Below the pieces are notes generated by a model. That model was not told the origin of the DNA and searched no databases. It was given only the letters and a program-made list of their open reading frames with translations. A program made the translations under genes and the position numbers. Positions 1-64,000 of a DNA stretch of 64,000 nucleotides are shown in pieces; position 1 is the first letter of the stretch, and each line of letters opens with the position of its first letter. This DNA comes from Siphonodentalium dalli (lineage: Eukaryota > Mollusca > Scaphopoda > Gadilida > Siphonodentaliidae), in NCBI GenBank assembly GCA_032622095.1, contig CP136064.1, forward strand, positions 247,723,827-247,787,826. The letters are read 5' to 3'.

Positions 1-311
1 TTGCGACGATGGTTCACAGAACGCTGCTAGTGTAAAAGGGTCGTTTGAATATGGGAGTACAGAGGAATATACTGCTTGGTGACTGAGTTGGCGACAACTT
101 TTGAAATTCCTGCTATCATAACTGAGTTCGTCGTATGACATCGAGAACACAGGAGATGATGAGGTGAAGGCTGGAAGGATTCGGCTGTCCCAGGTCGGTA
201 TCGGCGAATCCAGAATCGGAGTGGGTGTGTAGCTCTGTGGAGAATAGTCTTGGTGTTGAGTTTGTGTGTGACTAGGATTAACTTGCCTTCTTTTGTTTTC
301 TGGTTGAATAT
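1..311 (-). CDS. T-box copy A exon 7 (C-terminal region, partial)
   Basis: Acceptor gttttgcag at 312-319 on this strand. Joined in phase it stays open for 103 codons to the window edge (PENKRRQVNPSHTQT ... PILDSPIPTWDSRILPAF ... SMSYDELSYDS). The related region of copy B at 15198-15502 confirms the frame but has TGA where this copy has the W codon. No stop is seen, so more C-terminus lies to the left. Confidence 0.8.
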
Positions 312-3300
312 CTGCAAAACAAATAAAACATACGAATTAACAATTGAATTGTTCTGGAAATATTATCCAATGTAAATGATTACGAGAGCCTGTCGAGACG
401 GCAGTTGCAGCCAATAATTTCTTGAAGTGCATTTGGATAGATTCCAGGTGTTGTCATCTTGTATTTTACACACGTATTAGTCAGGAAATACAACCGACGA
501 TTCGCTTGTGTGTTAAGTGGATTCCAGGATTAATCTTTTTCAAATTCGTGAACAAATATTTGAATTTTCGTCTCAAAGTCGTTCTTCGTAAAAGAGGCTG
601 TGTTGCTTTCTCAGATTTGGAGTAAATTATAAAGAGAATATAAAATTAATTACTTTAACCTCATATGTGTATGAATACTTACCACTCGTATCTTCATACT
701 CTGATCTCAGTCGCTTCTTTGTCATTGTTCTGGTACTGGAAAGGAGAGGATACACAAGTCTGATTTCAATGAAAATAGTGATGGTCTAAAGTTCTTATCT
801 AAATATCTTATTATCTCCTTGTTTTATTTTGGCGACGGTTGAATTTCTCTACAATAACCGTGGAAGAAAATGTTAGGCGCCATAGTCCGAACTGAATCCA
901 AGTATCGGCTAATGGAACTGATGGGAGAAAACGCGAGATTTGAAAAAAACAAGAAGTAAACAATTACTTTATATCAACATTAAAGGCCGTGATGATATAT
1001 GGGTTCAATGATATAGATACTTGACCCGGAGGCAAATGGTTATAGTGGCTGTGGGGTGGACACAACCCTAATCCGTGTGTGCATATTTGTTATGTCATGC
1101 CGCCGAAAAATACCATAACTGACTGCATAACACTCACCTCTCATCTTTATTCTCTCTGAAGCCTTTTGCGAATGGATTGTTGTCGATCTTGAGCTTCGTG
1201 ATCTGAAAGAAGAAATTCCAATTGTGTCATAACGAATGTATGTTACGAGCCGAAGAGATACAAAGTGAAGTGTAAGGTTGACAGTTGAATAGAAAATTCG
1301 ATAAAAAGAGGATATAGTGTTGACCAATGGCTGAATGAGGCCTGAATAAATCACGAAGACTCCGCCCTAATGATTCTTAGCAACTATTCCAGAATAAAAA
1401 GTGGGGTGCTACCACGATCTCATTTGACTGATTACGAAGTACACTGATGTTTGGAATTCCATATAATACATCAAATCGAATTTATGAATACCCTTTTCAG
1501 TGTTATAATTATGTGCGCAGTTCATTGAATTTCCCTGACGTAGAGCTGAAATATGATGTTTTCCTTCTTCACTATTCAAGCTGTTACACTTGTTGAACCA
1601 GTGTCATGTGTTATTGGAAGGCTTGATATTTGTAATACTAGATACGTACCTCTTCGCTCTGGTATGCGGTGACGGGAATGAAAGTTGTCTCAGCAAAGGT
1701 GAAAGTGTTTGTTAGCGCTTGTCCGGGACGTTCGTCTGCCATGGCTATATGAAGACGAGGCTTGTATTTCTGCATCGTGTTCACTATGACCTGCAAACAG
1801 AAGTTAGGTTAAACCTTCGTTCACTGAATGGACTCTCACTTTCAGTTATAGCAGAATACAACGGAATGGTCTAATCATAATTAATTGTGTAATTTACCTT
1901 CGGGTCATATGAGCGAACGACAGACATAGAACCCCATTCAGATTTTGCCCCTAGGCCCTTAAGCTATATTGTTAACATATCTCTCAAATACTGCATGTAT
2001 TTACAGTTTAATGAGAATAAACATATTGAAAATTTAAATAAATTCTTCTGTAGGGATACACAGCTTTACGTTTTAACAGACATCCCTTGAAACGAATCAG
2101 TGAGAATAAAATAACTAGACATGGGCGAGTATATTCTACTTGACCAAACAATGTGACGCTTGTATAGTTTGAACTTGATTTAAACGACCACTATTTTGTT
2201 TCCATTCCATGACACAAATAAATATATAGATAACACCGGCATGATGTGTAGTGTGAGGCAATACAAAGTGAATGATTTTATATTATGTCCATACAATTCC
2301 AAATACCATGTTGATATTGTTGAGAATTGAGTTAAAGTTCAATGAAGTTAGTTCTTCTAAAACAAAAACCATCATACTTACATTCCCTTGCTGTGATTTC
2401 CTGTTATTTGTCAGTTTGAGTTTGTGGAACATGACAGACTTACGCATCCAGAATGATCCGGGTGCCGGGGAATCGGGATGTACATAGGTTGTCATGGGAA
2501 CCAGACTATCGGCGTTACCGGAAGCTAACCATTCAGAGTCGTAGAACTTGTACCGACAGTCGTCCACGGAAACCACGTCGATGGAGAGGGTGTACTGCTT
2601 CGTGGGGTGTAGTCCCTCAATGTAGTACGACAGTGATGGGAACATCCGTCTGCAAAGAGAAATCGTCATATAAAAATTTGTTGAATGTGCATAAGACAAA
2701 GATTTAGAGAACTGCGCGATTTGAGCTACTTGCGATCACCCTGTTTGTCAATATTTTATTTGTGTTCTTCCGCAAAATGCTGGCGGATGCAGTATGAACA
2801 TATTGTTCGGTCATTATTATAATGTACATTTATGTGATACAGTAAATACGCAAGAAAACGCTTTATTTATGTGCCTGAAACTTAGGAAAATTCAAGAAAT
2901 TATATGGCAATCACGTTACATTGTTCCCTGGCCCGATTTTCGGTAATAAAGGGACAGTTTTTAACATACTGAATAAAACGAATCAGGTGAATTGAATCCA
3001 ACTTGCTTCGCAATGTTCCAGACTTACCTTCCAACTTTGGTGACTATCATTTCCGTCCCAATCTTATCAAACCTCCTCCACATTCCAGCATTATGTATAG
3101 AGACGTTTACTTCCCTCTGGTGGCTATGGGTTGCACTAACATCAACGGGTCGTGTATGTTGGCATTCTGAAATAAGCAAAACAAGCATGAATGATGTGAA
3201 AATCAACTGGGTAAATAATAAGTACAAAACCGCATGCTCCATTTTATCATTCGCTAAGCATGAATTAGAAAGGTACCCGATTAAGCGTCGACCAAAAAAC

Positions 3301-3670
3301 AGCTCAGTTATGTGGGATTTGAAAATTTAGCACACATTATTTCAGTATTTTATGAAGAAATCAAAATGACGAAGTCTGAATTAATATAATAAACTAGAAC
3401 AATAATCCAGCGCCACTTTATGTTTTATATATGTTAATTCGGATAGAAGAGACTGGGTAAAACTTTCGGATTTAATATTAGCAGACAATGAATGTAAACT
3501 AATGGTACAACATACACAACGAAGGTGGAAATCTTACCTATTCCTGCAGCTGGATCCTGAGGTAGAATCTCTTGTTTCTTGTACCGACAACCTTGCGGCT
3601 GGTATGTCTGTGGAGGTAAGATCGACGGGATGACGGAGTCCCAGGTAGCGTAGACACTGTCAGAGAACAT
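1..3670 (-). CDS. T-box transcription factor gene, copy A (intact, 3' partial at window edge)
   Basis: T-box proteins bind DNA in the nucleus and control cell fate. Seven exons (3538-3670, 3028-3166, 2382-2649, 1650-1790, 1138-1202, 683-735, 1-311) join in frame to 370 codons; each intron has a GT donor and an AG acceptor. The start ATG at 3670 is preceded two codons earlier by an in-frame TGA. The T-box spans about residues 64-250. Landmarks are GTEMIVTK (81-88), GRRMFP (90-95), HPDSP (148-152), KLKLTNN (167-173), PVTAYQ (219-224) and NPFAKGFR (236-243). A basic run TKKRLR (254-259) could be a nuclear signal. The C-terminal part is rich in S, T, P and Q and stays open to the edge. The subfamily is unclear: DDCRYKF resembles Tbx2/3, while other positions (A to P in PVTAYQ, GNAD for GKAD) are divergent. 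It may be a lineage-specific T-box member. A mirrored, broken copy starts at 6491. Confidence 0.88.
683..735 (-). CDS. T-box copy A exon 6 (post-T-box basic segment)
   Basis: Acceptor tttccag, donor gtaagt; 53 nt. Encodes about 18 residues including TMTKKRLRSEYEDTS. A six-base-downstream acceptor (taccag) would also keep the frame, so two residues may be optional. The related copy B exon is at 14770-14809. Confidence 0.75.
1138..1202 (-). CDS. T-box copy A exon 5 (C-terminal helix of T-box)
   Basis: Acceptor tctttcag, donor gtgagt; 65 nt. Encodes ITKLKIDNNPFAKGFREN followed by KDE, the most conserved end of the T-box, which inserts into the DNA minor groove in family structures. The joined reading frame is kept with exons 4 and 6. 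Confidence 0.9.
1650..1790 (-). CDS. T-box copy A exon 4
   Basis: Acceptor gtttgcag, donor gtacgt; 141 nt, phase 0 at both ends. Encodes 47 residues: VIVNTMQKYKPRLHI, then ETTFIPVTAYQSEE. This matches the family block (I)LNSMHKYQPRxHI ... FPETxFIAVTAYQN. The usual A before VTAYQ is P here. The ORF is short, so a long-ORF search misses it. Confidence 0.9.
2382..2649 (-). CDS. T-box copy A exon 3 (core DNA-binding region)
   Basis: Acceptor tctttgcag, donor gtaagt; 268 nt ending in phase 0. Encodes residues 91-180: RRMFPSLSYYIEGLHP, then VDDCRYKFYDSEW, then YVHPDSPAPG, FWMRKSVMF and KLKLTNN. These are diagnostic T-box blocks in the right order and spacing. Confidence 0.92.
3028..3166 (-). CDS. 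T-box copy A exon 2 (start of T-box domain)
   Basis: Acceptor cttatttcag, donor gtaagt. Encodes residues 45-90 plus two bases of R91. The first part contains THSHQREVNV, the ancestral form of the copy B minisatellite unit. The second part, from NAGMWRRFDKIGTEM to TKVG, is the canonical start of a T-box (W..F...GTEMI.TK.G). Confidence 0.88.
3538..3670 (-). CDS. T-box copy A exon 1 (start codon, N-terminal 44 residues)
   Basis: The exon begins MFSDSVYATWDSVIP and ends with one extra base before the donor gtaaga (phase 1). An in-frame TGA lies two codons upstream of the ATG. An AG (in ttcattacag) about 12 bases before the ATG could be the acceptor of a 5' UTR intron. The homologous copy B exon at 6491-6623 has the same length and clear residue similarity, which supports this as real coding sequence. 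Confidence 0.82.
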
Positions 3671-4889
3671 GGTTCAATTCCTGTAATGAAAACGAAGGAA
3701 CTTAAAGTCAAAGCAGAATAAATAACCACGATTATATAAATCATGATTCAGTGATAAAAACAAAGTTACATGTACGTTCGAAAACGCGTCACATGGTGCA
3801 AAATACCTAGCCGCCATATCAATGGGATGCTAGTTGTAGAATCTTAAAATAAACTCAATTCAACAAGAGCGATTGATGCTAAACTAACATGAACCGCCAT
3901 TCAGTCTGACATTTAGTGGTACCTCAGAAAATTATGGTCCTCGCTGGCACATACATCGCCCCTTGAACTTAAGAGTATATCGGGACGTTTTAGACTTCGA
4001 TTGCAGAGAATCGTGTTTCTTATCTTAAAACATGAATAATTCTCATACATGTTGAAACCCTAAGATTACAATAATATATTGACCTTAACACAAACCACTA
4101 CAATAACAGCTGCATGGGAATCAAGAATCCAGTGTGATACGAATCATGACAATTTATTCTCCAAGTCGCGCAGTACGCAGTTGATTTAAAGAGCGTTTTA
4201 ATTGTTTACATTGTTCTCACACTTCTCTTGGCAGATAGTGCATTGCATAAGTGCAAAGTCGTAATAGTAAAATACTAATACAAGAATGGAGTGCTATATG
4301 CTAAAGTTGGTGCAAACTAAGAACAACATGTCGCGGGACTGTCCCAATGGGACTACTAGTAAGTCACTATATTAATATATTTGTATGTCGATAAAACTAA
4401 AAACGACCAGGAATAAAAGCACGGACAAAGTTGTGGATGTTGCGAACAATTTCTATGTCGAAAAAGGGGGATAACTCCACTACAGTCCGATCAAGCAGAT
4501 TCACATGGTACTAAATATCCGTGCCAAAAAATTACTGAAAATGTAGAAACACAACTCGACAAAATTGCGCCCACTGATGGACGGACAGACGGAGGTATAA
4601 TAATATGGCCATCGCTGACACACATATTATAAGGAACTGACCGCAGTTCCCTGAATTTAAAGTAAATTGGAATGTTTTAGAAAATTGGAAGTTTTAGACT
4701 AGGTTTGCATAGAATCTTGTTTTTGTTGAAACATGAAGAACTCTCGTTCATATAGAAACAATACGTTTTTAGTTATATGGACTGAACACTACACTGACAA
4801 GCTGAAAATAAAGTATTAAAATAGTAACACAAAGTAATATATGCTACTCACAATTTAACTGTAGCTGAGTCGTTGTGTTATAAAGTGAT

Positions 4890-5325
4890 GAAGTGGTTAT
4901 GATGCGTTATATTTGGATTATGCTTTATTCTGATGATAAGTTTCAGTATATATACAGATACAGGGATACTCATTGTCACATCTCACTTCCTCTGGTATTA
5001 ATTTTATAGATGCTCGACTAGTTTTCGGAGTTGTTTTCATAACGATACTAGTGTGATTAGTTATCAAGACAGCAATCAACAGTTGGGATTCTTATACAAA
5101 CAACTACTCATCGCGATCGTGTTTTTACAGTGCACACACCCTAAGATTATCAGTTTTCATAAGAATCAACCGTTGATTGCTGTTTTCATAACCTATCACA
5201 CCAGCATCGTAAAACAAATACCACGGAATTGAGAGCTGACAATGAGTATTCCTATAAGAGTATAAAAATACTGAAACCTATCACATAAAACTTCATACCA
5301 AAAATCCACATCATAACCATACATG
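4890..5325. repeat. Imperfect inverted repeat at the axis of the T-box inverted duplication
   Basis: gataagtttcagtata (4935-4950) is mirrored by atactgaaacctatc (5268-5282). gtgtgattagttatcaaga (5051) is mirrored by tttcataacctatcacac (5185). gcaatcaacagttgggattc (5072) is mirrored by gaatcaaccgttgattgc (5164-5181). The centre falls at about 5108-5127, against a midpoint of 5080 for the two start codons. I read it as the innermost part of the inverted duplication, which would make it the shared promoter-proximal sequence. Confidence 0.65.
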
Positions 5326-5908
5326 TATCAGCAAGTTACAAGAAAGACAGGTTCACAGAAATTCACGTCCAACCATGTTTAAAGATACGGGCGATGTTGG
5401 CTGTGGGTATACTTCTGTAACACGAGCAGGCTCTTGTTTACGTACACCATCGTACGTCTTGACTACAATATACTATTTACGCGTTGATTAAGTTTGGCAT
5501 ATGAACAAAACTATATATTTTTTAATATTCCTTCTGTTGATGGCGATTTGAACAAATATGATTATTTCTGCAACGAACGCCGCCCGTACCTTTAACTGTA
5601 AATTGTGTGGACTTTGAATCTCTTTTACTTTTGTGCTCTATATTTCACATCGCAAATAATTGTTTGGAGAATAAAAATAAATCATTTCGACAATATAAGG
5701 CTATTAACACCAAATTGTCCTTTATCTTTAGCACGGACGGATCCAGACTTCTCCTTTTCAAAAGATAAAACTGATTCATACCAATTCTCAAAACTTCCAT
5801 GTGCTCTCAGTTAATTCACCCCAAATGATATATGTATTTAATGCTATGTCAACTTTGTTTGATAATTTTATTTCAATAACCAATTACATGACACTACCGA
5901 ACCTGAAT

Positions 5909-5955
5909 CAATAACGAGAGAGAGAGTGAGAGAGAGAGAGATATATATATATATT
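5909..5955. repeat. (GA)n(TA)n microsatellite
   Basis: A run of GA dinucleotides passes directly into TA dinucleotides. Confidence 0.9.
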
Positions 5956-6490
5956 CTTCATAACTCCATATCACGGAGATTACATATAATACAAATATAT
6001 ACAACAAAATTATCTTACATATGATATAGTGAACAGTGCTCAACACAGACGCATTTGCTTATTCAACGCCAACATACAAAACGGCTAGGATATGTTTAAC
6101 CACAATAAAACTTGTGTAAACGAGTGTGCACAAGCTGTGAATAGAAAAAGTCAATGTCACTCTCCGAGTTTATTTTAACAATGAGATTTGAAATATACCC
6201 TTTAACTCTGTTCTAGCAGCATGGGCTACACAAGTTTACTTACATTGTTTTATCGATTCAATATATTCTATTTGATTACAGTTGGTATCAACTGCCTGTT
6301 GGGACACTAATGCTTTTTTGAGACCCGAGTATCAAATTAATACTTTGGTTAAAACTCATGTCATTTGGAGCGCCTCTATATGCGGAGGTTCGTGTAGTAT
6401 CACGACTGCTCAATTGAGATGTGTTTTTTGTGATAATTTGATCATGTTAATTTTATTCGTACCGTATCACTATACTGTAGCTATACAGTC

Positions 6491-6889
6491 ATGTTCTCTG
6501 GCAGTAGGTACGCTACCTGGGACTCCGCCATTCCGTCGATCGTACCTCCGCATACACATCAGTCACAAGGATGTCCATCCAAGAAACAAGACAGTCTACA
6601 TCAAGATTATGCTGCGGAAATAGATAAGATTTCAAAATACCAATATAACGTTGGCTCTCTTGAACCATTAGTTTTAAAACAATTCAGATTAAAATTTAAT
6701 GACAGTGTTCAAAGAATCTCGCGCAGTTGTCTGAGAGTATATCTTGTAATTCGGCCCAATATTTTTAAATCTCGTTTATCTCATGTGTGTTGTCGATTTG
6801 AGGATTACGTTTCATTCGATGGCAAGCCATATCGCGGCTCATTCAGCGTTACATTGGAGGTGGAGGAAAACGTGCCAGATACACTATGA
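6491..6889 (+). pseudogene. Copy B exon 1 with lost donor and 88-codon read-through
   Basis: Residues 1-44 (MFSGSRYATWDSAIPSI ... QDYAAEI) match copy A exon 1 at the same length. Copy A has G|gtaaga at the exon end; this copy has g|ataaga, so the donor is gone. The frame then runs on for 88 codons through former intron to TGA at 6887-6889. I recognise no domain in the read-through part (it includes RVYLVIRPNIFKSR and EDYVSFDGKPYRG). A 132-residue product is possible but unsupported. Confidence 0.6.
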
Positions 6890-7185
6890 ATGTGACTTTA
6901 TCACGAAGCCGTGCCCATCTGGATAAGAGCTCTATGTCACACTTTATTGTCGAACAACTTATGACGACTAGAGCCGAGATCCGTGATGTACCCAACCTAC
7001 TGAACTGACGATTCCCCCTCCCCATATAAATAACCCTTTTTCAGATGAATCTACGCCATCATGGTGTCAGAACCCAGTCATATTCTGATGGGACATAAAA
7101 TAAACTCGGAAGTTAGAATATTTATTTGCAAAGGTTTTATGTTTTCTTAATGTTCAGACCGTCGAACAACACATCGGCGAGTGGC

Positions 7186-8210
7186 CAATGTTGCTATAGG
7201 CCGCAGCCATCAGAGGGAAGTAACTCTGCAACAACAACGATCCGTCAATGTTACTGCCGACCACAGGCATCAGAGGGAAGTAACTCTGCCGCAACAACGA
7301 TCCGGCCATGTTATTGCCGACCACAAGTCGCCATGAGTCATGAGAGGGAAGTAACTCTATCACAACAACGATCCATCAATGTTATTGCCGACCACAGCCA
7401 TCAGAGGGAAGTTACTGTGCCGCAACAACGATCCGGTCATGTTACTGCCGACCGCAGCCATCAGAGGGAAGTAACCCTATCACAACAACGACAAGAACAC
7501 CATAATCAGAAACTCTATCACAACAACGATCCATCAATGTTATTGCCGACCACAGCCATCAGAGGGAAGTAACTCTGCCGCAACAACGATCCGGCCATGT
7601 TACTGCCGACCACAGCCATCAGAGGGAAGTAACTCTGCCGCAACAACGATCCGGTCATGTTACTGCCGACCACAGCCATCAGAGGGAAGTAACTCTGCCG
7701 CAACAATGATCCGGCCATGTTACTGTCGACCACTAGTCGCCATGAGTCATGAGAGGGGAGTAACCATATCACAGCAACGATCGGTTAATGTTACTGCCGA
7801 CCACAGCCATCAGAGGGAAGTAACTCGGTCACAACAACGATCCGTCAATGTTATTGCCGACCACAGCCATCAGAGGGAAGTAACTCTGCCGCAACAACGA
7901 TCCGGCCATGTTACTGCCTACCACATCCATCAGAGGGGAGTAACTCTGCCGCAACAATGATCCGGCCATGTTACTGTCGACCACTAGTCGCCATGAGTCA
8001 TGAGAGGGGAGTAACCATATCACAGCAACGATCGGTTAATGTTAATGCCGACCACAGCCATCAGAGGGAAGTAACTCTGTCACAACAACGATCCGTCAAT
8101 GTTAATGCCGACCACACCCATCAGAGGGAAGTAACTCTGCCACAACAACGATCCGTCAATGTTAATGCCGACCACTGCCATCAGAGAGAAGTAACTCTAC
8201 CACAACAACG
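7186..8210 (+). repeat. 60-bp minisatellite derived from T-box exon 2
   Basis: About 17 units of 60 bp. Each unit, read in the exon 2 frame, gives roughly QQRSVNVTADHSHQREVTLP and aligns along its full length with the 5' part of copy A exon 2 (TRPVDVSATHSHQREVNV). The array begins just inside the exon 2 acceptor (AG at 7156-7157). Some units carry a roughly 10-bp insertion (gtcgccatgag, at 7328, 7737 and 7988) that breaks the frame, and others have CGA to TGA. A larger repeat of 251 bp is visible: 7706-7798 recurs at 7957-8049. Confidence 0.9.
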
Positions 8211-9109
8211 ACAAGAAAACCATAATCAGAAATGGTAACGCCCTCAAGATCATATTATTAGCCATAAATATAAATTATAATATAAAATATATTGGTTACA
8301 TGAATGCACCGCCTCAGAATTCCGTTAAAACAACTAATCCTTCAAATTATTACAAAAAACTACGGCTTATTACTGCAGGTTTATCATTCACCACACCAGA
8401 AAGCTTCTAAATGAGGATCAAAAATCGAAGGTATTGTGTTCCCGCCAAGAGTGCATGGCCCAGCCATTGTTCATACCTAAACATCGAAAGCAATTAACGC
8501 GGTCATAATGGTTACATACTGCAACTATAAGACATCCAGCAGATACACACCCCACGAAAACCCGAATTGTGTTGTCCTGCGAGAAATCACATCGCTATAG
8601 CTCAATTTGACACGGCCAGATTAGCCTTCCTACAATATCCACAAACAAGATCATATATTATATACCCATGATTGTAATTATAGAATATAAAATATATTGG
8701 TTTCGCGAATGACCAACTCGGAATTACGTTAAAATAACAATAACAACCAGCACCTAATTAACGACCGGCGGTCGACTCGGCCGTCTCCGACCACAACCAT
8801 CAGTGGGCTGCAGAACGAAACATATCTATAAAAGTTGAAATATAAGACTTACAAATTATCTTTTAAATTTCTTTTATTGGTAATTGACATAGCTTGTCCC
8901 AAACCAAAAATCAACATTATTAACATAATAATGTAAAGGACAATAAACGAAATTGAAATTCCCAACTACACCTTTTACCGGACTCGGCCTCTTGGTCGCG
9001 CAGTTCGACTTTTAAATAAACCGGAAAAACCAATTTTCTATTTATAAAACCCCATCGGATCACATCTTTCTAATATTTGCCGAACGACATACACGCGGGC
9101 GTGCTAATT
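8211..9109 (+). mobile_element. Unclassified dispersed repeat R, copy 1, inside copy B exon 2
   Basis: Starts at gaaaaccataatcagaaatg and ends near acacgcgggcgtgctaat, after which exon 2 resumes at 9110. Much of it recurs in inverse orientation at 12185-13020 and directly at 19311-19798. It contains two versions of its own left end (8211-8330 and 8635-8750). No transposase frame is seen. The superfamily is unknown. Confidence 0.7.
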
Positions 9110-9229
9110 AGTCAATGTTACTGCCGACCACAGCCACCGAATGGAAGTAACTATGTCTCTACATAATGCTGGACTGTGGAGACAGTTTAATCAGATTGGG
9201 ACGGAACTGTTAGTCACCAAAGTTGGGAG
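9110..9229 (+). pseudogene. Copy B exon 2, 3' part (start of T-box)
   Basis: Reads NVTADHSHRMEVTMSLHNAG, then LWRQFNQIGTELLVTKVG, and ends at donor gtaagt with the same phase as copy A. This is the canonical first block of a T-box, changed at several positions (R to Q, M to L). It is cut off from its own acceptor by the minisatellite and by repeat R. Confidence 0.85.
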
Positions 9230-11179
9230 GTAAGTAGTCACACTTACAAAAATTTCAGATTCAATTCGCCGGTTAAAACTGTGTATTCATCAAAACAAAC
9301 CCTGACGAGATGGCATGGCCACGTAGTTTGTCATACAGTTTATTTTATTCGTCACAGATGAATCAGATCAAATGCCGAAATAACGTGTATCTCCTCAGGG
9401 ACGTGGCTAGAGCACAGAAGTTGGAATCACTGACTTTTATGCCATTTTTTTTAGATTTTTTTGGAGTTATAGGCATTAGGTTTCAGAAGAACGGAAAGTA
9501 ACATTTTCGAGGTACCTCCACAACCATTCACTTCGACCCGTGAATTTTAACAACAAAAGCATAAATCTCAGGGTTTTCGGCATATTTAGTTAGAAAAATC
9601 ATTGATCTACAATCTTACCGCGAGCATAGCATCTATTCGTTGATTTATTCCAGGTTTTATCGCACGTTAACAAAAAAAATTCACCTGTTAACTCGGTGGT
9701 ACCGCCGAAGTTTGCCGGACCTCCTCGTGTGTCTTCGACAAATCGGGTAGTAGGAAAACTGGTATTCGGAGCCGGAACATTGTTATCGGTCAAAACAATC
9801 AGCCCACGGCAAAGGTCTATTAAAAGTATCAGGTTCTGCCTTCCCAGCTGGTCCATTAAGCGTTGTTTCATTGTGTAATATGGTCATTTGAGTGTTAAAC
9901 AGAATAAAATGTCAAGAAAGGGATTTTGGTGTTTTAGACGCAGAATAACACATCCAAACTATCCAGAAATTCAAGTTGGCGTTCAACATATCCACCGAAA
10001 CTAATAAATAGCTAGGGCAAATTACTCACAAAGTCAAATTGACCAAACACGAATACAGTCTCGATATGGACATCTGATTGTAAACAATATGCTTTGGGTG
10101 TGCATGGCTGAGAATGTGTCGACATTTCAAGATGGCTACCAAAATGGTCGTCGAAAATTGTCAAAATTTGAGTGATATCAAAATCATTACGATTAAATAA
10201 TTAGCCAGTACAATTTTCCAACGTATTGATTCCCATTTATCGGGACAACAATTTTTCAAACAAAGCAGTATCTTCGTTAGATTCAAACCTGATAGTCACA
10301 CACTAAGAGGGCATTTTGCAATTATGGCGAGCGATGAGCTTAATTGTTTTCAAATATGTACGAAAAAACAGATGTCAATAGCTACGTGCAGACATGATTA
10401 TCGATGAACGATTGCCAGTAAACATATGGTCCCGGTTGTTCATTCAGCAAATTGTGTAGCGCAAAAAATGCGTGATATGACATACCAGCTGGCATGATGC
10501 TACGCTGAAACCAGGTAACATATTCTGATATATAATCACGCATAAGAGCGAATATTTCCCATTACAATTCACACAAGAGTCACACAACACCCACGTGCGC
10601 TTATATACTTTGAATTCTAGCTGATTTATTTTCACCATACGCGGCACTTCACCCATAAGTGTATTGTAAACGTAGCTGTGGATATAAAATCGATCTGACT
10701 ATATACCTATCGTGTTCCCGGCCATTCAAGTGTACCCTCACAACAAGAGAACACTGTTTATTCGAGCGGGGATTATGTCCGTCTTTCCTGACGATGTATG
10801 ATAATTACAACTCACATGGTCACAATGAGGGAGTATTCACTCTTATTTGATGATTGATCTATATAAATCGCCTATAAATACGAATAGTACCCTCCGCTCA
10901 CCGCAACTTATAACCTGGGTAACTTTATAACAATTTCAGGAACCTGGGTAACTTTGTCACATTGGCTTAACAATATTTACGTTGACCTTGTAAGCCAGTG
11001 TATTCTCTTTTATATGCGAGGATCCCAATGGTAGATTCTGATATATAATGAACTGGCACATGATCTGTAAGTCTGCACCAGCACAGCTCCCACAATGAAA
11101 GGGTTTAATCGTCTAGTTGGCACCGATGACTCGCTCCCAATTCGCAATTAATATTTTAATGTGATTATTTCTTTTTCAG
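9230..11179 (+). other. Intron 2 of T-box copy B
   Basis: 1950 bp against 378 bp in copy A. It contains a fragment of the gggacgtggctaga repeat family at about 9399-9425 and a partial hairpin-module fragment at about 10985-11045 (attctcttttatatgcgagg). The rest shows no clear feature. Short ORFs here (for example 9599-9871 minus) have no recognisable domain. Confidence 0.5.
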
Positions 11180-11283
11180 GCGGATGTTCCCTTCACTGGC
11201 GTATACACTCGATTGAATGCTTCCACACCACGACGCAATACACCCTCTCCATCAACGTGGTGTCCGTGGATGACTGTCGGTAC
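11180..11283 (+). pseudogene. Copy B exon 3, truncated
   Basis: Acceptor ctttttcag, then RRMFPSL in the correct phase, followed by TGA at 11214. A net 4-nt gain relative to copy A shifts the frame, after which the block equivalent to LSIDVVSVDDCRY is still readable. Homology stops at 11283, exactly where repeat R begins. The last 56 codons of the exon (through KLKLTNN) are missing. Confidence 0.85.
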
Positions 11284-13020
11284 TAGAAAACCATAGTCAG
11301 AAATGGTAACGCGCTCAAGATCATATATTATATACCCATGATTGTAATTATAGAATTTTTATCATTTCTGTTATTTGTAATTGGCATAGCTTATCACAAA
11401 CCAAAAATCAACATTATTGACATAATGTAAACGCCAATAAACGAAATTGAAATTCTCAACTAGACCTTTCACCGGGCTCGGCCTCGGGGTCGCACTACAG
11501 CTCGGGTCGGGGTCGCACTACAACTTTTAATGTGTCCCAATAATTAACATTCTATAAATAAAACCCCCATGCGCTATGGCAGCGCCCAGGAGAAACTACG
11601 AAGTTAACACTATAGGAACCAGGAAGCTAAATGTGTTCCAGAGTCGAGGAGCGTGTGCTAAAGGTGACGGTTACTGAAGAATGACCTTCACCTGATACAT
11701 GTGACACGTTATTAAAGGATGAAATCGTGTTTATTTGATTTGTACATATCTAAATAATTTAAACTGGTGAATTAATGGGGGATGAATTTTTGTGAGTGGG
11801 AAATTTATTTAACTGGCTGCTATAGTTTTGGGGTTTTTTTTCCAGATCAAATTTGGCTGTGGGATAGCCCTGTCGTACACTTGGGGATTTATTTTAAAAA
11901 GTAAACACATGACCTATTATTTTTCTTGCATTTTCGTGATCAACTGGTGTCAATCTAGCTGGGTAAACATCACTGGAGTGGCCTGTAGGCTTCAAGTCAG
12001 TGAATTTGGCCGAAACGTTAACAGTGTCGCCTGTGGGAAACCATTCCTGTACACATTATCTTTTCAGTATATAGAGTTACTTCTCTTTCATCAGATACAG
12101 ATATTTCATTGTTTGGTCATTCACGCCCATCTGGTGTATACTGGTGGCCGAATATTATAAACATGTGGGCCGATGGGACTTTTATAAATAGAATATTTTT
12201 TTTCCGGTTTATTTATTTAAAAGTCGAACTGCGCGATCAGGAGGCCAGTCACCGGTAAAAGGTGTAGTGGGAATTTCAATTTCGTTTATTGTCCTTTACA
12301 TTATTATGTCAATAATGTTGATTTTTGGTTTGTGACAAGCTATGTCAATTACCAATAAAAGAAATTAAAAAGATAATTTGTAAGTCTTATATTTCAACTT
12401 TTATAGATATTTTTCGTTCTGCAGCCCACTGATGGTTGTGGTCGGAGACGGCCGAGTCGGCCGCCGGTTCGTTAATTATGTGCTGGTTGTTATTGTTATT
12501 TTAACGGAATTCTGAGTTGGTCATTCGCGAAACCAATATATGTTATATTCTATAAAGCATGGGTATATAATATATGATCTTGTTTATGGATATTGTAGGA
12601 AGTCTAATCTGACCGTGTCAAATTGAGCTATAGCGATGGGATTTATCGCAGGACAACACATTTCGGGTTTTCGTGGGGTGTGTATCCGCTGGATGTCTTA
12701 TAGTTGCAGTATGTAACAAATATGACCGCGTTAATTGCTTTCGATGTTTAGGTATGAACAATGGCAGGACCATGCACTCTTGACGGGAACACAATACCTC
12801 CGATTTTTTTATCCGCATTTAGAAACTTTCTGGTGTGGTGAATGAGAAACCTGCAGTAATAAGCCGTAGTTGTTTGTAATAATTCGAAGGATTAGTTGTT
12901 TTAACGGAATTCTGAGGTGGTGAATTCATGTAACCAATATATTTTATATTATAATTTATATTTATGGCTAATAATATGATCTTGAGGGCGTTACCATTTC
13001 TGATTATGGTTTTCTTGTGT
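11284..13020. mobile_element. Composite of repeat R with inverted ends, truncating exon 3
   Basis: Left end gaaaaccatagtcagaaatg (11285) and right end catttctgattatggttttc (about 12999-13018) are inverted copies of each other. The right part (12185-13020) is the reverse complement of most of 8211-9080. The middle, 11590-12184, is not seen elsewhere in the window; it contains an open frame at 11828-12160 with no recognised domain. It could be an element with long inverted ends or two copies in opposite orientation. Confidence 0.6.
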
Positions 13021-13347
13021 ATATATGGGCTTCAATAATAATCTTGATCACTGAGTCGCTACCAAATTGGATCCACCAGCACAGTTCCGCGCATTCAGTG
13101 CTACAGGTCAATGGCTGGAGTAGCATCCAATATATGTAACTTTTGAATATTCATGAATGTTCAAAACTCCATATATGGAATGTATTTTTTTTTCTCAAGA
13201 ACTTTGACCTGCAGCACTTAAGGGCTGGATGGATCCATCCAGATGGATCCATCCAGACTGAGGGCTGGATGGATCCAATATGGTAGCGACTTAGTGATCA
13301 GGCTTATGCTACTAATAATTTTACCAAACAAATTATTGGGAATAAGA
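13021..13347. other. Repeat-rich gap between copy B exons 3 and 4
   Basis: No gene. A local inverted repeat pairs gatcactgagtcgctaccaa (about 13045) with taccattggatcc-like sequence near 13275-13300 (tatggtagcgacttagtgatc). A short palindrome of repeated ggatggatccatccag lies at 13226-13260. The pairing suggests a foldback element of about 255 bp (13046-13301). Confidence 0.5.
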
Positions 13348-13543
13348 TTAACCCTTTCCATACTAAATATTCATTGACGAGTAGTTATCCCTTGGGAAAT
13401 GTTCAGGTAATAGGTCGTTTGTTGATTTGTTTTATCTGTCGTCTGCTTATATTTCCCAACAACACATCGAGATTAATAATAGAACATTCCAAAGTATACT
13501 TTTATAACTGGTAGGAGAATCCATTTAGTATAGAAAGAGTTAA
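13348..13543. mobile_element. TTAA-flanked MITE (family M), copy 1
   Basis: TTAACCCTTTCC at the left and GAAAGAGTTAA at the right, with inverted ends containing atactaaat / atttagtat. A TTAA target duplication and CCC/GGG ends fit the piggyBac superfamily. Related copies: 25418-25656, 44995-45275, 48653-48910. Confidence 0.65.
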
Positions 13544-13689
13544 TTAGAAGTGGTGTCACAACCTGTCATCTGCTTGCCAGTGTATGATCTGAATATACAT
13601 ACAGGCGAAGAAATTCATTCCATTGTATAACTGCATGGATCAAAGAATGCATTCACTTAATAAAGGGTTTAATATGTTTGTCTTTACAA

Positions 13690-13830
13690 GTTATAGTGAA
13701 CACGATGCAGAAATGCAATTCCGGTCCTCACATCTTCATGGCAGACGACCGTTTCGGAAATACACCAGCCAAGACCTTCACCTTTGATGAAACAACTTTC
13801 ATTCCTGTCACCGCATACCAGAGAGAAGAG
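13690..13830 (+). pseudogene. Copy B exon 4
   Basis: 47 codons, the same length as copy A exon 4: VIVNTMQKCNSGPHIFMADD ... ETTFIPVTAYQREE. The frame is open, but the acceptor is CAA in place of CAG and the donor is GC in place of GT. A GC donor can work; the lost acceptor is the more serious lesion. The core KYKPRLHI has become KCNSGPHI. Confidence 0.85.
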
Positions 13831-14154
13831 GCACGTAAATGAATATTTCTCACAAGTTTCATAATATTCAATGCATTGCTCTAGATTTTCGAAACAAATC
13901 TTACTAAAATAATGAAGAATAAAGACATCACATTTGAGTTCTACTTTAGAGAAATAAAACAAACTGCATTAATAATGTAATTACTAGAAAGAGCAAACAA
14001 ATTTGACTTGGAGCGTGACATAAAATATCTAACCAGCGAATGGTTTGTGTGCGTCTCGAGTACACCTATCAGTTATCTTATGTAAACACTTATCATTTCA
14101 TCGCATTTTGCTCGTAATACACATTCGTCATGACGCAATTCTAATTTCTTTCAG

Positions 14155-14219
14155 ATCACCAAGCTGAAGATTGCCAATAACCCATTTGCAAAATGTTTTA
14201 GAGGGTATAATGACGAGAT
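14155..14219 (+). pseudogene. Copy B exon 5
   Basis: 65 nt, the same as copy A, with good acceptor (tttcag) and donor (gtgagt). Reads ITKLKIANNPFAKCFRGYND. The G of NPFAKGF is C here, a change at a nearly invariant position. Confidence 0.85.
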
Positions 14220-14394
14220 GTGAGTGTTTGCATCACGATATGTGTGTCTAGTCCATAACTACTTTAATGGTTTGTATTCTGACTGAAGTTTAAATTAAAC
14301 CCCTTTATCGATGGCACGAAGATCAAGTTGGTATCGGGTCATCGGTTTTTATACAAATCGTTTGGATTCACCCACTTGTTACATTGGTTCGATA

Positions 14395-14612
14395 ACATCG
14401 ATTATGATGATGGTGACGACGAAGACGACACCGATTATTTGATGATGGTGGTGGCGATGATTGCGATGAGGACAATGCTGCTGATGACGATGTTGTTGAT
14501 GACGACGGATGATGGTGGTGGTGGTGATGGCGACGACGACAAATACGACGACAATGTGTAACCGACGACGACGACGACACTGGGGATCCTATACGACGAC
14601 GATGATGATGAT
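14395..14612. repeat. GAT/GAC trinucleotide repeat
   Basis: Imperfect (GAT/GAC/GGT)n run inside intron 5 of copy B. Open frames on both strands here are products of the repeat. Confidence 0.9.
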
Positions 14613-14769
14613 GATTTATCCTAAGCTGCTGTATAATTTTCTTCTATAAATACACTCATCAAATCTTACCTTCTATTGTATATTGGTTAAACATAGTATA
14701 ATAATAAGAAGAGTGCAAATTTTCTTTTGGTCAAAATATGACGATCATTTCCTTTTTTTCTCGTTCCAG

Positions 14770-14809
14770 AACAATAACAAAGAAAGATCTGAGTCTGAAG
14801 ACATGACTG
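14770..14809 (+). pseudogene. Copy B exon 6, frameshifted
   Basis: Acceptor gttccag, donor gtaaga. 40 nt against 53 (or 47 with the downstream acceptor) in copy A. The 7-nt loss puts TGA at 14804 in the joined frame. Confidence 0.75.
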
Positions 14810-15197
14810 GTAAGATTACTATAGATGTATATGCGATGTCAAAATCATTATTTATATATTATGAGTCTTCTTTTTACTTTAAAAGCTGAAGGTGATACAG
14901 CCTCTTCTACAAGGCAATTACTCAAATAATTCGACACGATAATTGAAATTTATAAATTTATTCATGAATTCACTTCAACACAATATATAATGTACAAACC
15001 ACATCGCGGATGGTTTGTATCTTACATGTGCAGAAGTTACAGCATTGGTATTTAAACTTAAGTTTATTTTGTAAAAACAAATGGATTGGGGCACACGTTT
15101 TTGCAACATATGGAGCCCACGTGGCACGGGAGCATATATCAAATTAAATAATGAAGAATAATTCCAATTTTAATTAATTTGTTTTAATTGTTTGCAG

Positions 15198-15502
15198 GCT
15201 TGCGGCGTTGCAACAAGAGTGCAAAAGAAGGCTAGTCGAACATAAACAAGCACAAGATCTTCACAATGAAAATGGTCAACATAGTTACCCACCCATTCCT
15301 ATTCTGGATTCCCCGATACCGACCTGAGATCGCCGCATCCTCCCAGCCTTCATCTCATCAAGATCGTACGACGATTCATATGATGACGTCAGAAGTTTCA
15401 CCAGTTGTCAATAGATCAGTCACCAGTCACTGAGTTCCTCTGCGCTCTCATACCCCAGAGACTTCCACTTTCTTGCACTAACATCTTTGTGTATACCAAC
15501 TT
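15198..15502 (+). pseudogene. Copy B exon 7 (C-terminal region)
   Basis: Acceptor tttgcag. In the frame homologous to copy A it reads QECKRRLVEHKQAQDLHN ... PILDSPIPT and then TGA (15325), where copy A has TGG. DNA similarity to copy A continues through about 15502. Confidence 0.75.
15298..15383 (+). repeat. 86-bp perfect direct repeat, first copy
   Basis: Identical to 16101-16186. This copy sits in the ancestral place, since its flanks on both sides align with copy A exon 7. Perfect identity inside a decayed pseudogene points to a recent duplication or conversion. Confidence 0.9.
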
Positions 15503-15529
15503 CCCGATCAAGTCTGAGTTTTTTTGTCA

Positions 15530-15960
15530 TTTGCAGAATGAGGTCCCCAGAGGGTGAATTTAGTGACTCAATAGCATAGCGGGCTAACATCACTAAATTC
15601 ACCATGGGGACATCATTCTGCTTATGCCTCATCTAGCTTCTCTGGAAAGTTTCTTTATTATCAAATTTCTATAGAAACTATAGATTCTATTCCTTTTCTA
15701 GTTTATAGGTTTTATTTCTTGTCTAGTTTAGTTGCTCTACATGTATATCCCCAAATTGCCAGACGACACATTGCATAATCGAGGTTCCCAATGGGTGTAC
15801 ATCACAATATTCACCATTTTTGGGAACTTCAATCTGAGTCTATGTCTCCCATAGCAGATGAGGCCATGCAGAATGAGGTTCCCATAAGGTGAATTTATTT
15901 ATGCTAGCTCGCTATGTTGGCTAGCGTCACTAAATTCATCCTCTAGGAACCTTATTCTGT
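15530..15960. mobile_element. Hairpin repeat family G, two copies (15534-15628, 15868-15960)
   Basis: Each is a short foldback: cagaatgaggt(t)ccc followed by gtgaatttagtga, pairing with tcactaaattcacc and gggacatcattctg. Related hairpins lie at about 18055, 26965-27040 and 51405-51605. The stretch between the two copies has no other feature. Confidence 0.65.
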
Positions 15961-19203: not shown

Positions 19204-19945
19204 AACAGAATATATATGCAACAAATGAATGACTTTGAGCCAGAGATGAGTGCAAAATACACTCATGCGCTCTATATGAACATTGTAAACAACATAGTAT
19301 ATACAAGAAACCCATAGTCAGAAATGGTAACGCGCTCAAGATCATATATTATATACCCATGATTGTAATTATAGAATATAAAATATATTGGTTTCGCGAA
19401 TGACCAACTCAGAATTCCGTTAAAATAACAATAACAACCAGCACATAATTAACGAACCTGTGGCCGACTCGGCCGTTTCCGACCACAACCCTCAGTGGGC
19501 TGCAGAACGAGAAATGTCTATAAAAGTTGAAATATAAGACTTACAAATTATCTTTTAAAATTTCTTTTAATGCTAATTGACATAGCTTGTCACAAACCAA
19601 AAATCAACATTATTGGCATAATAATGTAAAGGACAATACACAAAATTGAAATTCCAAACTACACCTTTTACCGGACTCGGCCTCCTGGCAGTTCGACTTT
19701 TAAACCGGAAAAAACAATTATCTATAAATAAAATGCCCATGGGACCACGGCTATCAAGAAATTTCCGAACAGTATACACGCGGTGCGCGCGCTAATAATG
19801 AAAATTAGTTTGTGGCTCGAGCCATAAACTCATTTTCATTACAATTACCATGATGTTTACATTGTTCACAGACCACATGAATGTATTTTTGCACTCATCC
19901 CTGGCTCAAAGTCATTCATTTGTTGCATATATTCTGTCGTGTATA
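19204..19945. mobile_element. Inverted-repeat element enclosing repeat R copy 3
   Basis: caacaaatgaatgactttga (about 19218) is mirrored by tcaaagtcattcatttgttg (about 19905-19924). The arms are about 90-100 bp. Repeat R copy 3 (19311-19798) and a 42-bp palindrome centred on ggctcgagcc (19799-19840) fill the middle. Confidence 0.7.
19311..19798 (+). mobile_element. Repeat R, copy 3
   Basis: Begins acccatagtcagaaatgg and follows 8635-9100 closely (caagatcatatattatatac, gcagaacga, cggactcggcctc). It is shorter than copy 1, lacking the first internal block. Confidence 0.75.
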
Positions 19946-33789: not shown

Positions 33790-34685
33790 GCATAATTATA
33801 CTAAACACCTCAAAATAAGAAGGTCCCCATGACATATTACACTGTATATCAAGAATCATGAGGCCGCCTCACTAAATACATAAAAATAAGTAAGTCCCCT
33901 TGTCATACTTGCACGCTACCTCAAGAATCTTAGACCACCTTACTAAACACCTAAATATAAGTTAAATCCCCTGATATATCACACTGTATCTCAAGAAGTA
34001 TCACACTGTATCTCAAGAATTATGAGGCCCCCTCACTAGATACATCAAAATAAGTAAGTTCCCTTGTCAAATTGCACTCTACCTCAAGAATCCTGAGACC
34101 GCCTTACTAAACAGTAAACACCCCAAAATAAGTAAGTCCCCCTGATATATCACACTGTATCTCAAGAAATGTGAGCCCCCCCCCCCCCCAACTAGATAAA
34201 TCAAAATAAGTAAGTTCCCTTGTCAAATTGCACTCTACCTCAAGAATCATGAGACCGCCTTAGTAAATACATCAAAATAAGTAAGTCCCCCTGACATATC
34301 ACACTGTACCTCAAGAACCATGAGGCCCCCTCACTAAATACATCAAAATAAGTAAGTCCCCCTGACATATCACACTGTACCTCAAGAACCATGAGGGCCC
34401 CTCACTAAATACATCAAAATAAGTAAGTCCCCCTGACATATCACACTGTACTTCAAGAACAATGAGGCCCCCTCACTAGATACATCAAAATAAGTAAGTC
34501 CCCCTGACATATCACACTGTACTTCAAGAACCATGAGGCCCCCTCACTAAATACATCAAAATAAGTAAGTCCCCCTGACTTATCACATTGTACTTCAAGA
34601 ACCACGAGGCCCCCTCACTAAATACATCAAAATAAGTAAGTCCCCCTGACATATCACACTGTATCTTAATAATCCTGAGGCTGAT
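33790..34685 (+). repeat. 71-bp minisatellite
   Basis: About 12 units with the shared words tcactaaatacatcaaaata, agtaagtccccctgac and tatcacactgta. Spacing between equal words is 71 bp in the most regular part (34331, 34402, 34473). Units on the left are more diverged and of variable length. Includes a poly-C run at 34177-34189. Confidence 0.95.

Positions 34686-38038: not shown

Positions 38039-64000
<25,962 letters not shown>

What the first reader, a model, noticed from the sequence alone, without database searches (positions are those of the whole stretch)
7186..8210. Minisatellite grown from a protein-coding exon segment
The 60-bp unit aligns from end to end with the 5' part of T-box exon 2 (residues about 45-64 of copy A) and keeps a 20-codon period. 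The array starts just after the old acceptor, and the first two units stay in frame. Tandem growth inside a conserved regulator's exon, next to the T-box, is unusual and could have been the first lesion of copy B or a late by-product.
Basis: seen in the sequence. Interest (0 to 1): 0.75.

Follow-up and report, generated by a model that had tools for sequence, protein, structure and literature searches.

The report
Exon-born repeat in a dead gene
A 60-letter piece of one exon of a broken copy of a developmental-regulator (T-box) gene has been copied in tandem to 17 units, and sister genes nearby still show the one-unit and two-unit stages; it is a clear example of a known kind of event rather than a new system.

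Summary
A 60-bp (20-codon) array fills the start of exon 2 of the plus-strand T-box copy B: 16 units at 7172-8202 and a 17th cut in two by an 896-bp transposon at 8212-9107. The unit aligns end to end with copy A's 20 codons (42 of 60 bases; best of 2000 shuffles 32). Neighbours preserve the steps: 13 of 13 A-type exons compared hold one unit, 7 of 7 other B-type copies that keep exon 2 hold two. Unit 1 resembles doublet unit 1; internal units are mostly B2-like in the 5' half and B1-like in the 3' half, as unequal exchange in a doublet would give; the last unit is mixed. The array is not coding now: stop at 7334, even variation over codon positions, exon 1 donor lost, exon 3 truncated. A 21-bp transposon tip inside the array points to rearrangement at or after transposon arrival. 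Which lesion came first is unsettled. The surrounding T-box expansion is the more striking feature.

The parts
3099..3158 (-). Single 60-bp unit in copy A exon 2 (HTRPVDVSATHSHQREVNVS), the one-unit state
6491..6623 (+). Copy B exon 1, open from ATG; donor position reads AT (ATAG|ATAAG) where 15 of 15 compared A-type exons read GT
7156..7157 (+). Acceptor AG of copy B exon 2, conserved in B-type paralogues
7172..8202 (+). Array of 16 units of 60 bp (units 3, 9, 13 are 71 bp with the same 11-bp insertion; unit 5 is followed by a partial unit with the transposon tip)
7492..7512 (+). 21 bp matching the transposon tip at 20 of 21 bases, after the same 9 bp (CAACAACGA) that precede the transposon at 8212
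7334..7336 (+). First in-frame stop (TGA), after the 11-bp insertion in unit 3
8203..8211 (+). First 9 bp of unit 17, left of the transposon
8212..9107 (+). 896-bp high-copy non-autonomous transposon, inserted A^T without target-site duplication, splitting unit 17
9108..9229 (+). Rest of unit 17 (to 9158) and T-box-proximal body of exon 2, intact donor GTAAGT from 9230
11153..11282 (+). Truncated copy B exon 3; a related transposon piece follows at 11283, at the same point as in other B-type copies

Best explanation
This is a minisatellite born from the exon itself. In the B-type lineage of a local T-box gene cluster, 20 codons at the start of exon 2 were duplicated in frame to a doublet (shown by seven paralogues). 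In the window copy only, that doublet grew to 17 units by repeated unequal exchange or replication slippage across the unit1|unit2 junction (inferred from the hybrid make-up of the internal units), including a 251-bp four-unit block that was itself duplicated. A high-copy transposon inserted in the last unit (shown by a clean 60-bp empty site), and the junction was then probably copied into the array (inferred from the 21-bp tip at 7492). The array lies in a non-functional copy and evolves without coding constraint.
For: One unit in 13 of 13 A-type exons compared, two in 7 of 7 other B-type copies that retain exon 2, 17 in the window. Over 15 sites that differ between the doublet units, unit 1 is B1-like at 14 of 15; internal units 2-16 read B2 at 85, B1 at 40 and neither at 10 of 135 cells in the 5' half, and B1 at 62, B2 at 17 and neither at 11 of 90 cells in the 3' half. 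Genome search with the array: 11 matches, all within the cluster on contig C4; protein search: all 41 matches with E below 1e-4 lie at C4:247.17-247.73 Mb. Units 9 and 13 are identical over 71 bp. Variants among units 2-16 fall 9, 9 and 10 on codon positions 1, 2, 3; 9 of 28 synonymous against 0.24-0.29 expected without selection. Exon 1 donor lost, stop at 7334, exon 3 truncated.
Against: Unit 17 is mixed (5' half 4 B1, 3 B2, 2 neither; 3' half 1 B1, 3 B2, 2 neither), not cleanly B2-like. Some B2-like states are also the A-type state, so part of the 5' signal is shared ancestry. The 60-site unit tree nests the B2 units among the internal units and leaves units 10 and 14 at the base; I printed no support values. 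dN/dS of copy B against A-type exons is below 1 (exon 1 0.27-0.45, exon 2 0.44-0.67), so part of the history was under constraint, though the A branch contributes. Unit 5, next to the transposon tip, is not especially close to unit 16 (9 of 60 differences), so the tip may be a second insertion later deleted rather than a copied junction. One assembly only; no reads or individuals.
Confidence: 0.88

Rival explanations
1. An existing satellite or a transposon-borne repeat invaded the exon.
For: A high-copy transposon directly abuts the array and its tip is found inside the array; transposons can carry or spread tandem repeats (listing only: PMC3389668, PMC6947457).
Against: The unit is homologous in frame to the exon of 13 one-unit paralogues; B-type copies with two units have no transposon beside them at that site; the array query matched only this cluster; the next-best protein match outside, C5:35663198 (E 0.001), is an unrelated short repeat.
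Confidence: 0.03
2. The long array is ancestral and the paralogues lost units by contraction.
For: Tandem arrays can contract; no outgroup species is available here.
Against: All 13 A-type exons have one unit and 7 B-type copies have two with one shared junction; 19 further single-unit-type and 7 doublet-type matches appear in the genome-wide protein list, sets that overlap those above. Many parallel contractions to the same registers would be needed.
Confidence: 0.04
3. The repeat is or was a functional coding minisatellite: a variable N-terminal extension before the T-box.
For: Period of exactly 20 codons, in-frame doublet, units 1-2 still open, unit 17 and exon 2 body open with an intact donor.
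Against: Stop at 7334, 11-bp insertions in three units, no codon-position bias, donor of exon 1 lost, exon 3 truncated; the seven doublet copies share a TAG in unit 2. At most the doublet stage could have been coding.
Confidence: 0.04

Closest known systems
PRDM9 zinc-finger coding minisatellite (PMC3890296; abstract and outline seen)
   Same: Tandem units of a fixed number of codons inside one exon of a gene for a DNA-binding protein; turnover by minisatellite-type mechanisms.
   Different: PRDM9's array encodes the DNA-binding fingers and is functional and polymorphic; this one lies before the T-box, has lost its frame, sits in a pseudogene, and its polymorphism is unknown.
MUC2 and other exonic minisatellites (PMC2065792; search listing only)
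   Same: Minisatellite within an exon.
   Different: Mucin repeats are coding and selected; here there is no sign of coding constraint.
Canonical (Helitron1) rolling-circle transposons, for the element at 8212-9107 (PMC5148889; passages seen)
   Same: A^T insertion without target-site duplication, CTAA 3' end.
   Different: No TC at the 5' end and no hairpin stronger than shuffles; kept as 'Helitron-like' only.

Membership tests
Exonic minisatellite (tandem repeat of 10-100 bp units inside an exon) | Head-to-tail units of one length in one block | tested here: met
Exonic minisatellite (tandem repeat of 10-100 bp units inside an exon) | Lies between acceptor and donor of a homologous exon | tested here: met
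   acceptor 7156-7157 and donor 9230 conserved with paralogues; the transposon now lies inside too
Exonic minisatellite (tandem repeat of 10-100 bp units inside an exon) | Copy number varies between individuals (VNTR) | not testable with these tools
   one assembly held
Functional coding repeat (PRDM9-like) | Open frame through the array and codon-level constraint | tested here: not met
   stop at 7334; variants 9, 9, 10 over codon positions
T-box gene (copy B as a working member) | Complete T-box exons with functional splice sites | tested here: not met
   exon 1 donor AT; exon 3 matches only residues 11-34 of the 90-residue copy A query
Canonical Helitron (element 8212-9107) | A^T insertion, no target-site duplication | tested here: met
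   10 genome copies examined of the 40 listed: base before the start is A in 9 of 10, base after the end is T in 10 of 10; window empty site is exactly 60 bp
Canonical Helitron (element 8212-9107) | 5' TC | tested here: not met
   starts CAAG
Canonical Helitron (element 8212-9107) | 3' CTRR with hairpin 10-12 nt upstream | tested here: inconclusive
   CTAA in 8 of 10 copies; folding of the window end is no better than shuffles (149 of 200 fold at least as well) and the palindrome touches CTAA

The most novel reading that the evidence does not exclude
The B-type T-box lineage passed through a stage in which a doubled 20-residue segment before the T-box was translated, and the same doublet then became the seed of a minisatellite once the copy died: a locus where the whole path from single exon segment, to in-frame protein repeat, to free-running non-coding minisatellite can be read from living paralogues, with a transposon as a time mark.
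Probability: 0.3. Interest if true: 0.5.

Novelty: new member of a known kind. Interest (0 to 1): 0.35.

Why it matters
The starting steps of minisatellite birth are rarely visible because the one-unit and two-unit stages are usually lost. Here a tandem gene cluster keeps them side by side (1, 2 and 17 units), so the junction that was copied, the register, and the relaxation of coding constraint can be read directly. It matters as a worked example, not as a new mechanism.

Tried and rejected
Invading satellite: rejected; the C5:35663198 match (E 0.001) was fetched and is an unrelated short repeat. Frame-keeping selection in the array: not found. A conserved exon 4 in B-type copies (98-99% identical at 13650-13970 against lower values either side) looked like constraint, but variable columns per 50 bp are low and even over most of 13401-14250, so the contrast is not specific to the exon. 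The tip of the transposon as proof that the array grew after insertion: kept as likely only, since a second insertion with deletion would look alike. Unit tree: run but 60 sites with mosaic units resolve little. Papers on T-box expansions of this kind: searches gave none that I could tie to this genome (listings and abstract openings only); T-box gene with minisatellite and exon: no paper; Helitron with minisatellite, CTRR, hairpin, bivalve, at least four of five: none. The species was not identified.

Rows dropped before counts: one A-type exon 2 (held region, offset 32012) whose match began only at residue 22, and one A-type exon 2 cut by the edge of L029, are not among the 13; one B-type copy (held region about 134000-141500) has 3' exons but no exon 2 match and is not among the 7. 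Insertions (11 bp in units 3, 9, 13; the tip and partial unit after unit 5) were left out of the 60-column unit alignment.

Full report
Place. The window is G000:C4:247723827-247787826 of a 2.23-Gb genome held in nine contigs. Copy A (minus strand, exons from 3671 down) and copy B (plus strand, exons from 6490 up) stand head to head. A T-box family search gave 154 exon-level matches at E <= 0.001, a lower bound because 150 of 279 candidates were scored and the list was cut; by my count 62 of the listed ones are strong N-terminal-half exons (E <= 4e-24): 28 at C4:191.56-192.01 Mb, 22 at C4:247.17-247.73 Mb, 12 elsewhere.

Anatomy of the array. Exon 2 of copy B starts after AG 7156-7157. In codon register, unit 1 is 7172-7231 and unit 16 is 8143-8202; unit 17 is cut by an 896-bp element at 8212-9107 and is exactly 60 bp without it. 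Units 3, 9 and 13 carry the same 11-bp insertion; units 9 and 13 are identical over 71 bp; TRF sees a 251-bp period with 93% matches. The exon frame is open through units 1-2 and stops at 7334.

Homology to the exon. The consensus of units 2-16 (QQRSVNVTADHSHQREVTLP) matches the corresponding 20 codons of copy A at 42 of 60 bases, and 40-44 over 13 A-type copies; shuffles reached 32 at best in 2000.

The staircase. In the held 200 kb, the window and two small loci, 13 of 13 A-type exons compared have one unit and 7 of 7 B-type exon 2s other than the window's have two; one A-type and one edge-cut A-type exon were dropped and one B-type copy has no exon 2 match. The seven doublets share a TAG in unit 2; the window's unit 17 does not have it, so the stop probably arose after the lineages parted (inference). 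A genome-wide protein search lists 41 matches with E below 1e-4, all at C4:247.17-247.73 Mb: 9 in the array, 1 in the copy B exon body, 7 of doublet extent, 19 of single-unit extent and 5 shorter (extents read from query coverage, 150 of 1744 candidates scored). The DNA search gave 11 matches, all in the cluster; that tool skips very common words, so rarity is supported, not proven.

How it grew. At 15 sites that differ between the common doublet units, unit 1 is B1-like at 14. Units 2-16 together read 85 B2, 40 B1, 10 neither in the 5' half (9 sites) and 62 B1, 17 B2, 11 neither in the 3' half (6 sites). Internal units are thus hybrids across the B1|B2 junction, as expected if a doublet grew by unequal exchange or slippage. 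Against a clean picture: unit 17 is mixed, and at several 5' sites the B2-like letter is also the A-type letter. The HKY+G tree of all units puts unit 1 with the B1 units and the B2 units among the internal ones, with units 10 and 14 at the base; support was not printed.

Constraint. Variants among units 2-16 fall 9, 9, 10 on the three codon positions; 9 of 28 are synonymous, 0.32 against 0.24-0.29 expected at random. Copy B's exon 1 and exon 2 body against A-type copies give dN/dS 0.27-0.45 (8 comparisons) and 0.44-0.67 (7 comparisons), while A against A gives 0.18-0.57 (4) and 0.19-0.30 (3); exons are short and these are rough.

State of copy B. The exon 1 donor reads AT where 15 of 15 compared A-type exons read GT. 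Exon 3 ends at the same base in the window and in both B-type copies compared, and a related transposon piece follows there in the window and in three held copies found with at most two substitutions. So copy B does not encode a complete T-box.

Order of events. The window copy's stretch before exon 2 (6886-7187) is 75-76% identical to six B-type copies, whereas one of those is 94-98% identical to the others; downstream of 10959 the window is mostly 92-98% identical to them (99% at best; one segment of one copy falls to 90%). This contrast suggests exchange of the 3' half, so the shared exon-3 truncation may have reached the window copy late. The expansion was seen only in the window copy, but whether it preceded the loss of function is not settled.

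The transposon. Its query gave 5003 candidates of which 40 were scored, 92-96% identical apart from itself, on contigs C1-C9. In 10 copies examined, the base before is A in 9 and the base after is T in 10; CTAA ends 8 of 10. TC at the 5' end is absent and the end hairpin folds no better than shuffles, so it is called Helitron-like only, by comparison with the features given in PMC5148889 (passages). Its first 21 bp recur at 7492-7512 with one mismatch and the same 9-bp left flank: either the junction was copied into the array after insertion, or a second insertion at the same site was mostly deleted.

Known kinds. Coding minisatellites such as the PRDM9 array are established (PMC3890296, abstract and outline; further listings). 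No paper holding 'T-box gene', 'minisatellite' and 'exon' together was found in the library. I file this as a new member of a known kind.

Noticed in passing
C4:191.56-192.01 Mb and C4:247.17-247.73 Mb (window holds the right end of the second): Very large T-box expansion: 62 strong N-terminal-half T-box exon matches listed, 28 and 22 of them in these two clusters; a lower bound.
   Followed up: partly
window 157-15508 and held region C4:247440001-247640000: An A-type gene and a degenerate B-type partner stand head to head, and this pair is repeated several times along the cluster.
   Followed up: partly
window 6886-9412 versus 10959-15600: Copy B looks mosaic: about 75% identical to paralogues before exon 2 but mostly 92-98% downstream, suggesting exchange between copies.
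   Followed up: partly
window 12151-13017, 11283 onward, 19303-19796: Further copies or pieces of the same high-copy element family, one inserted in copy B exon 3.
   Followed up: partly
window 33799-34681, 52862-53608, 58788-59461: Other tandem arrays (71-bp, TCA-rich with 172-bp period, 174-bp) reported by TRF.
   Followed up: no
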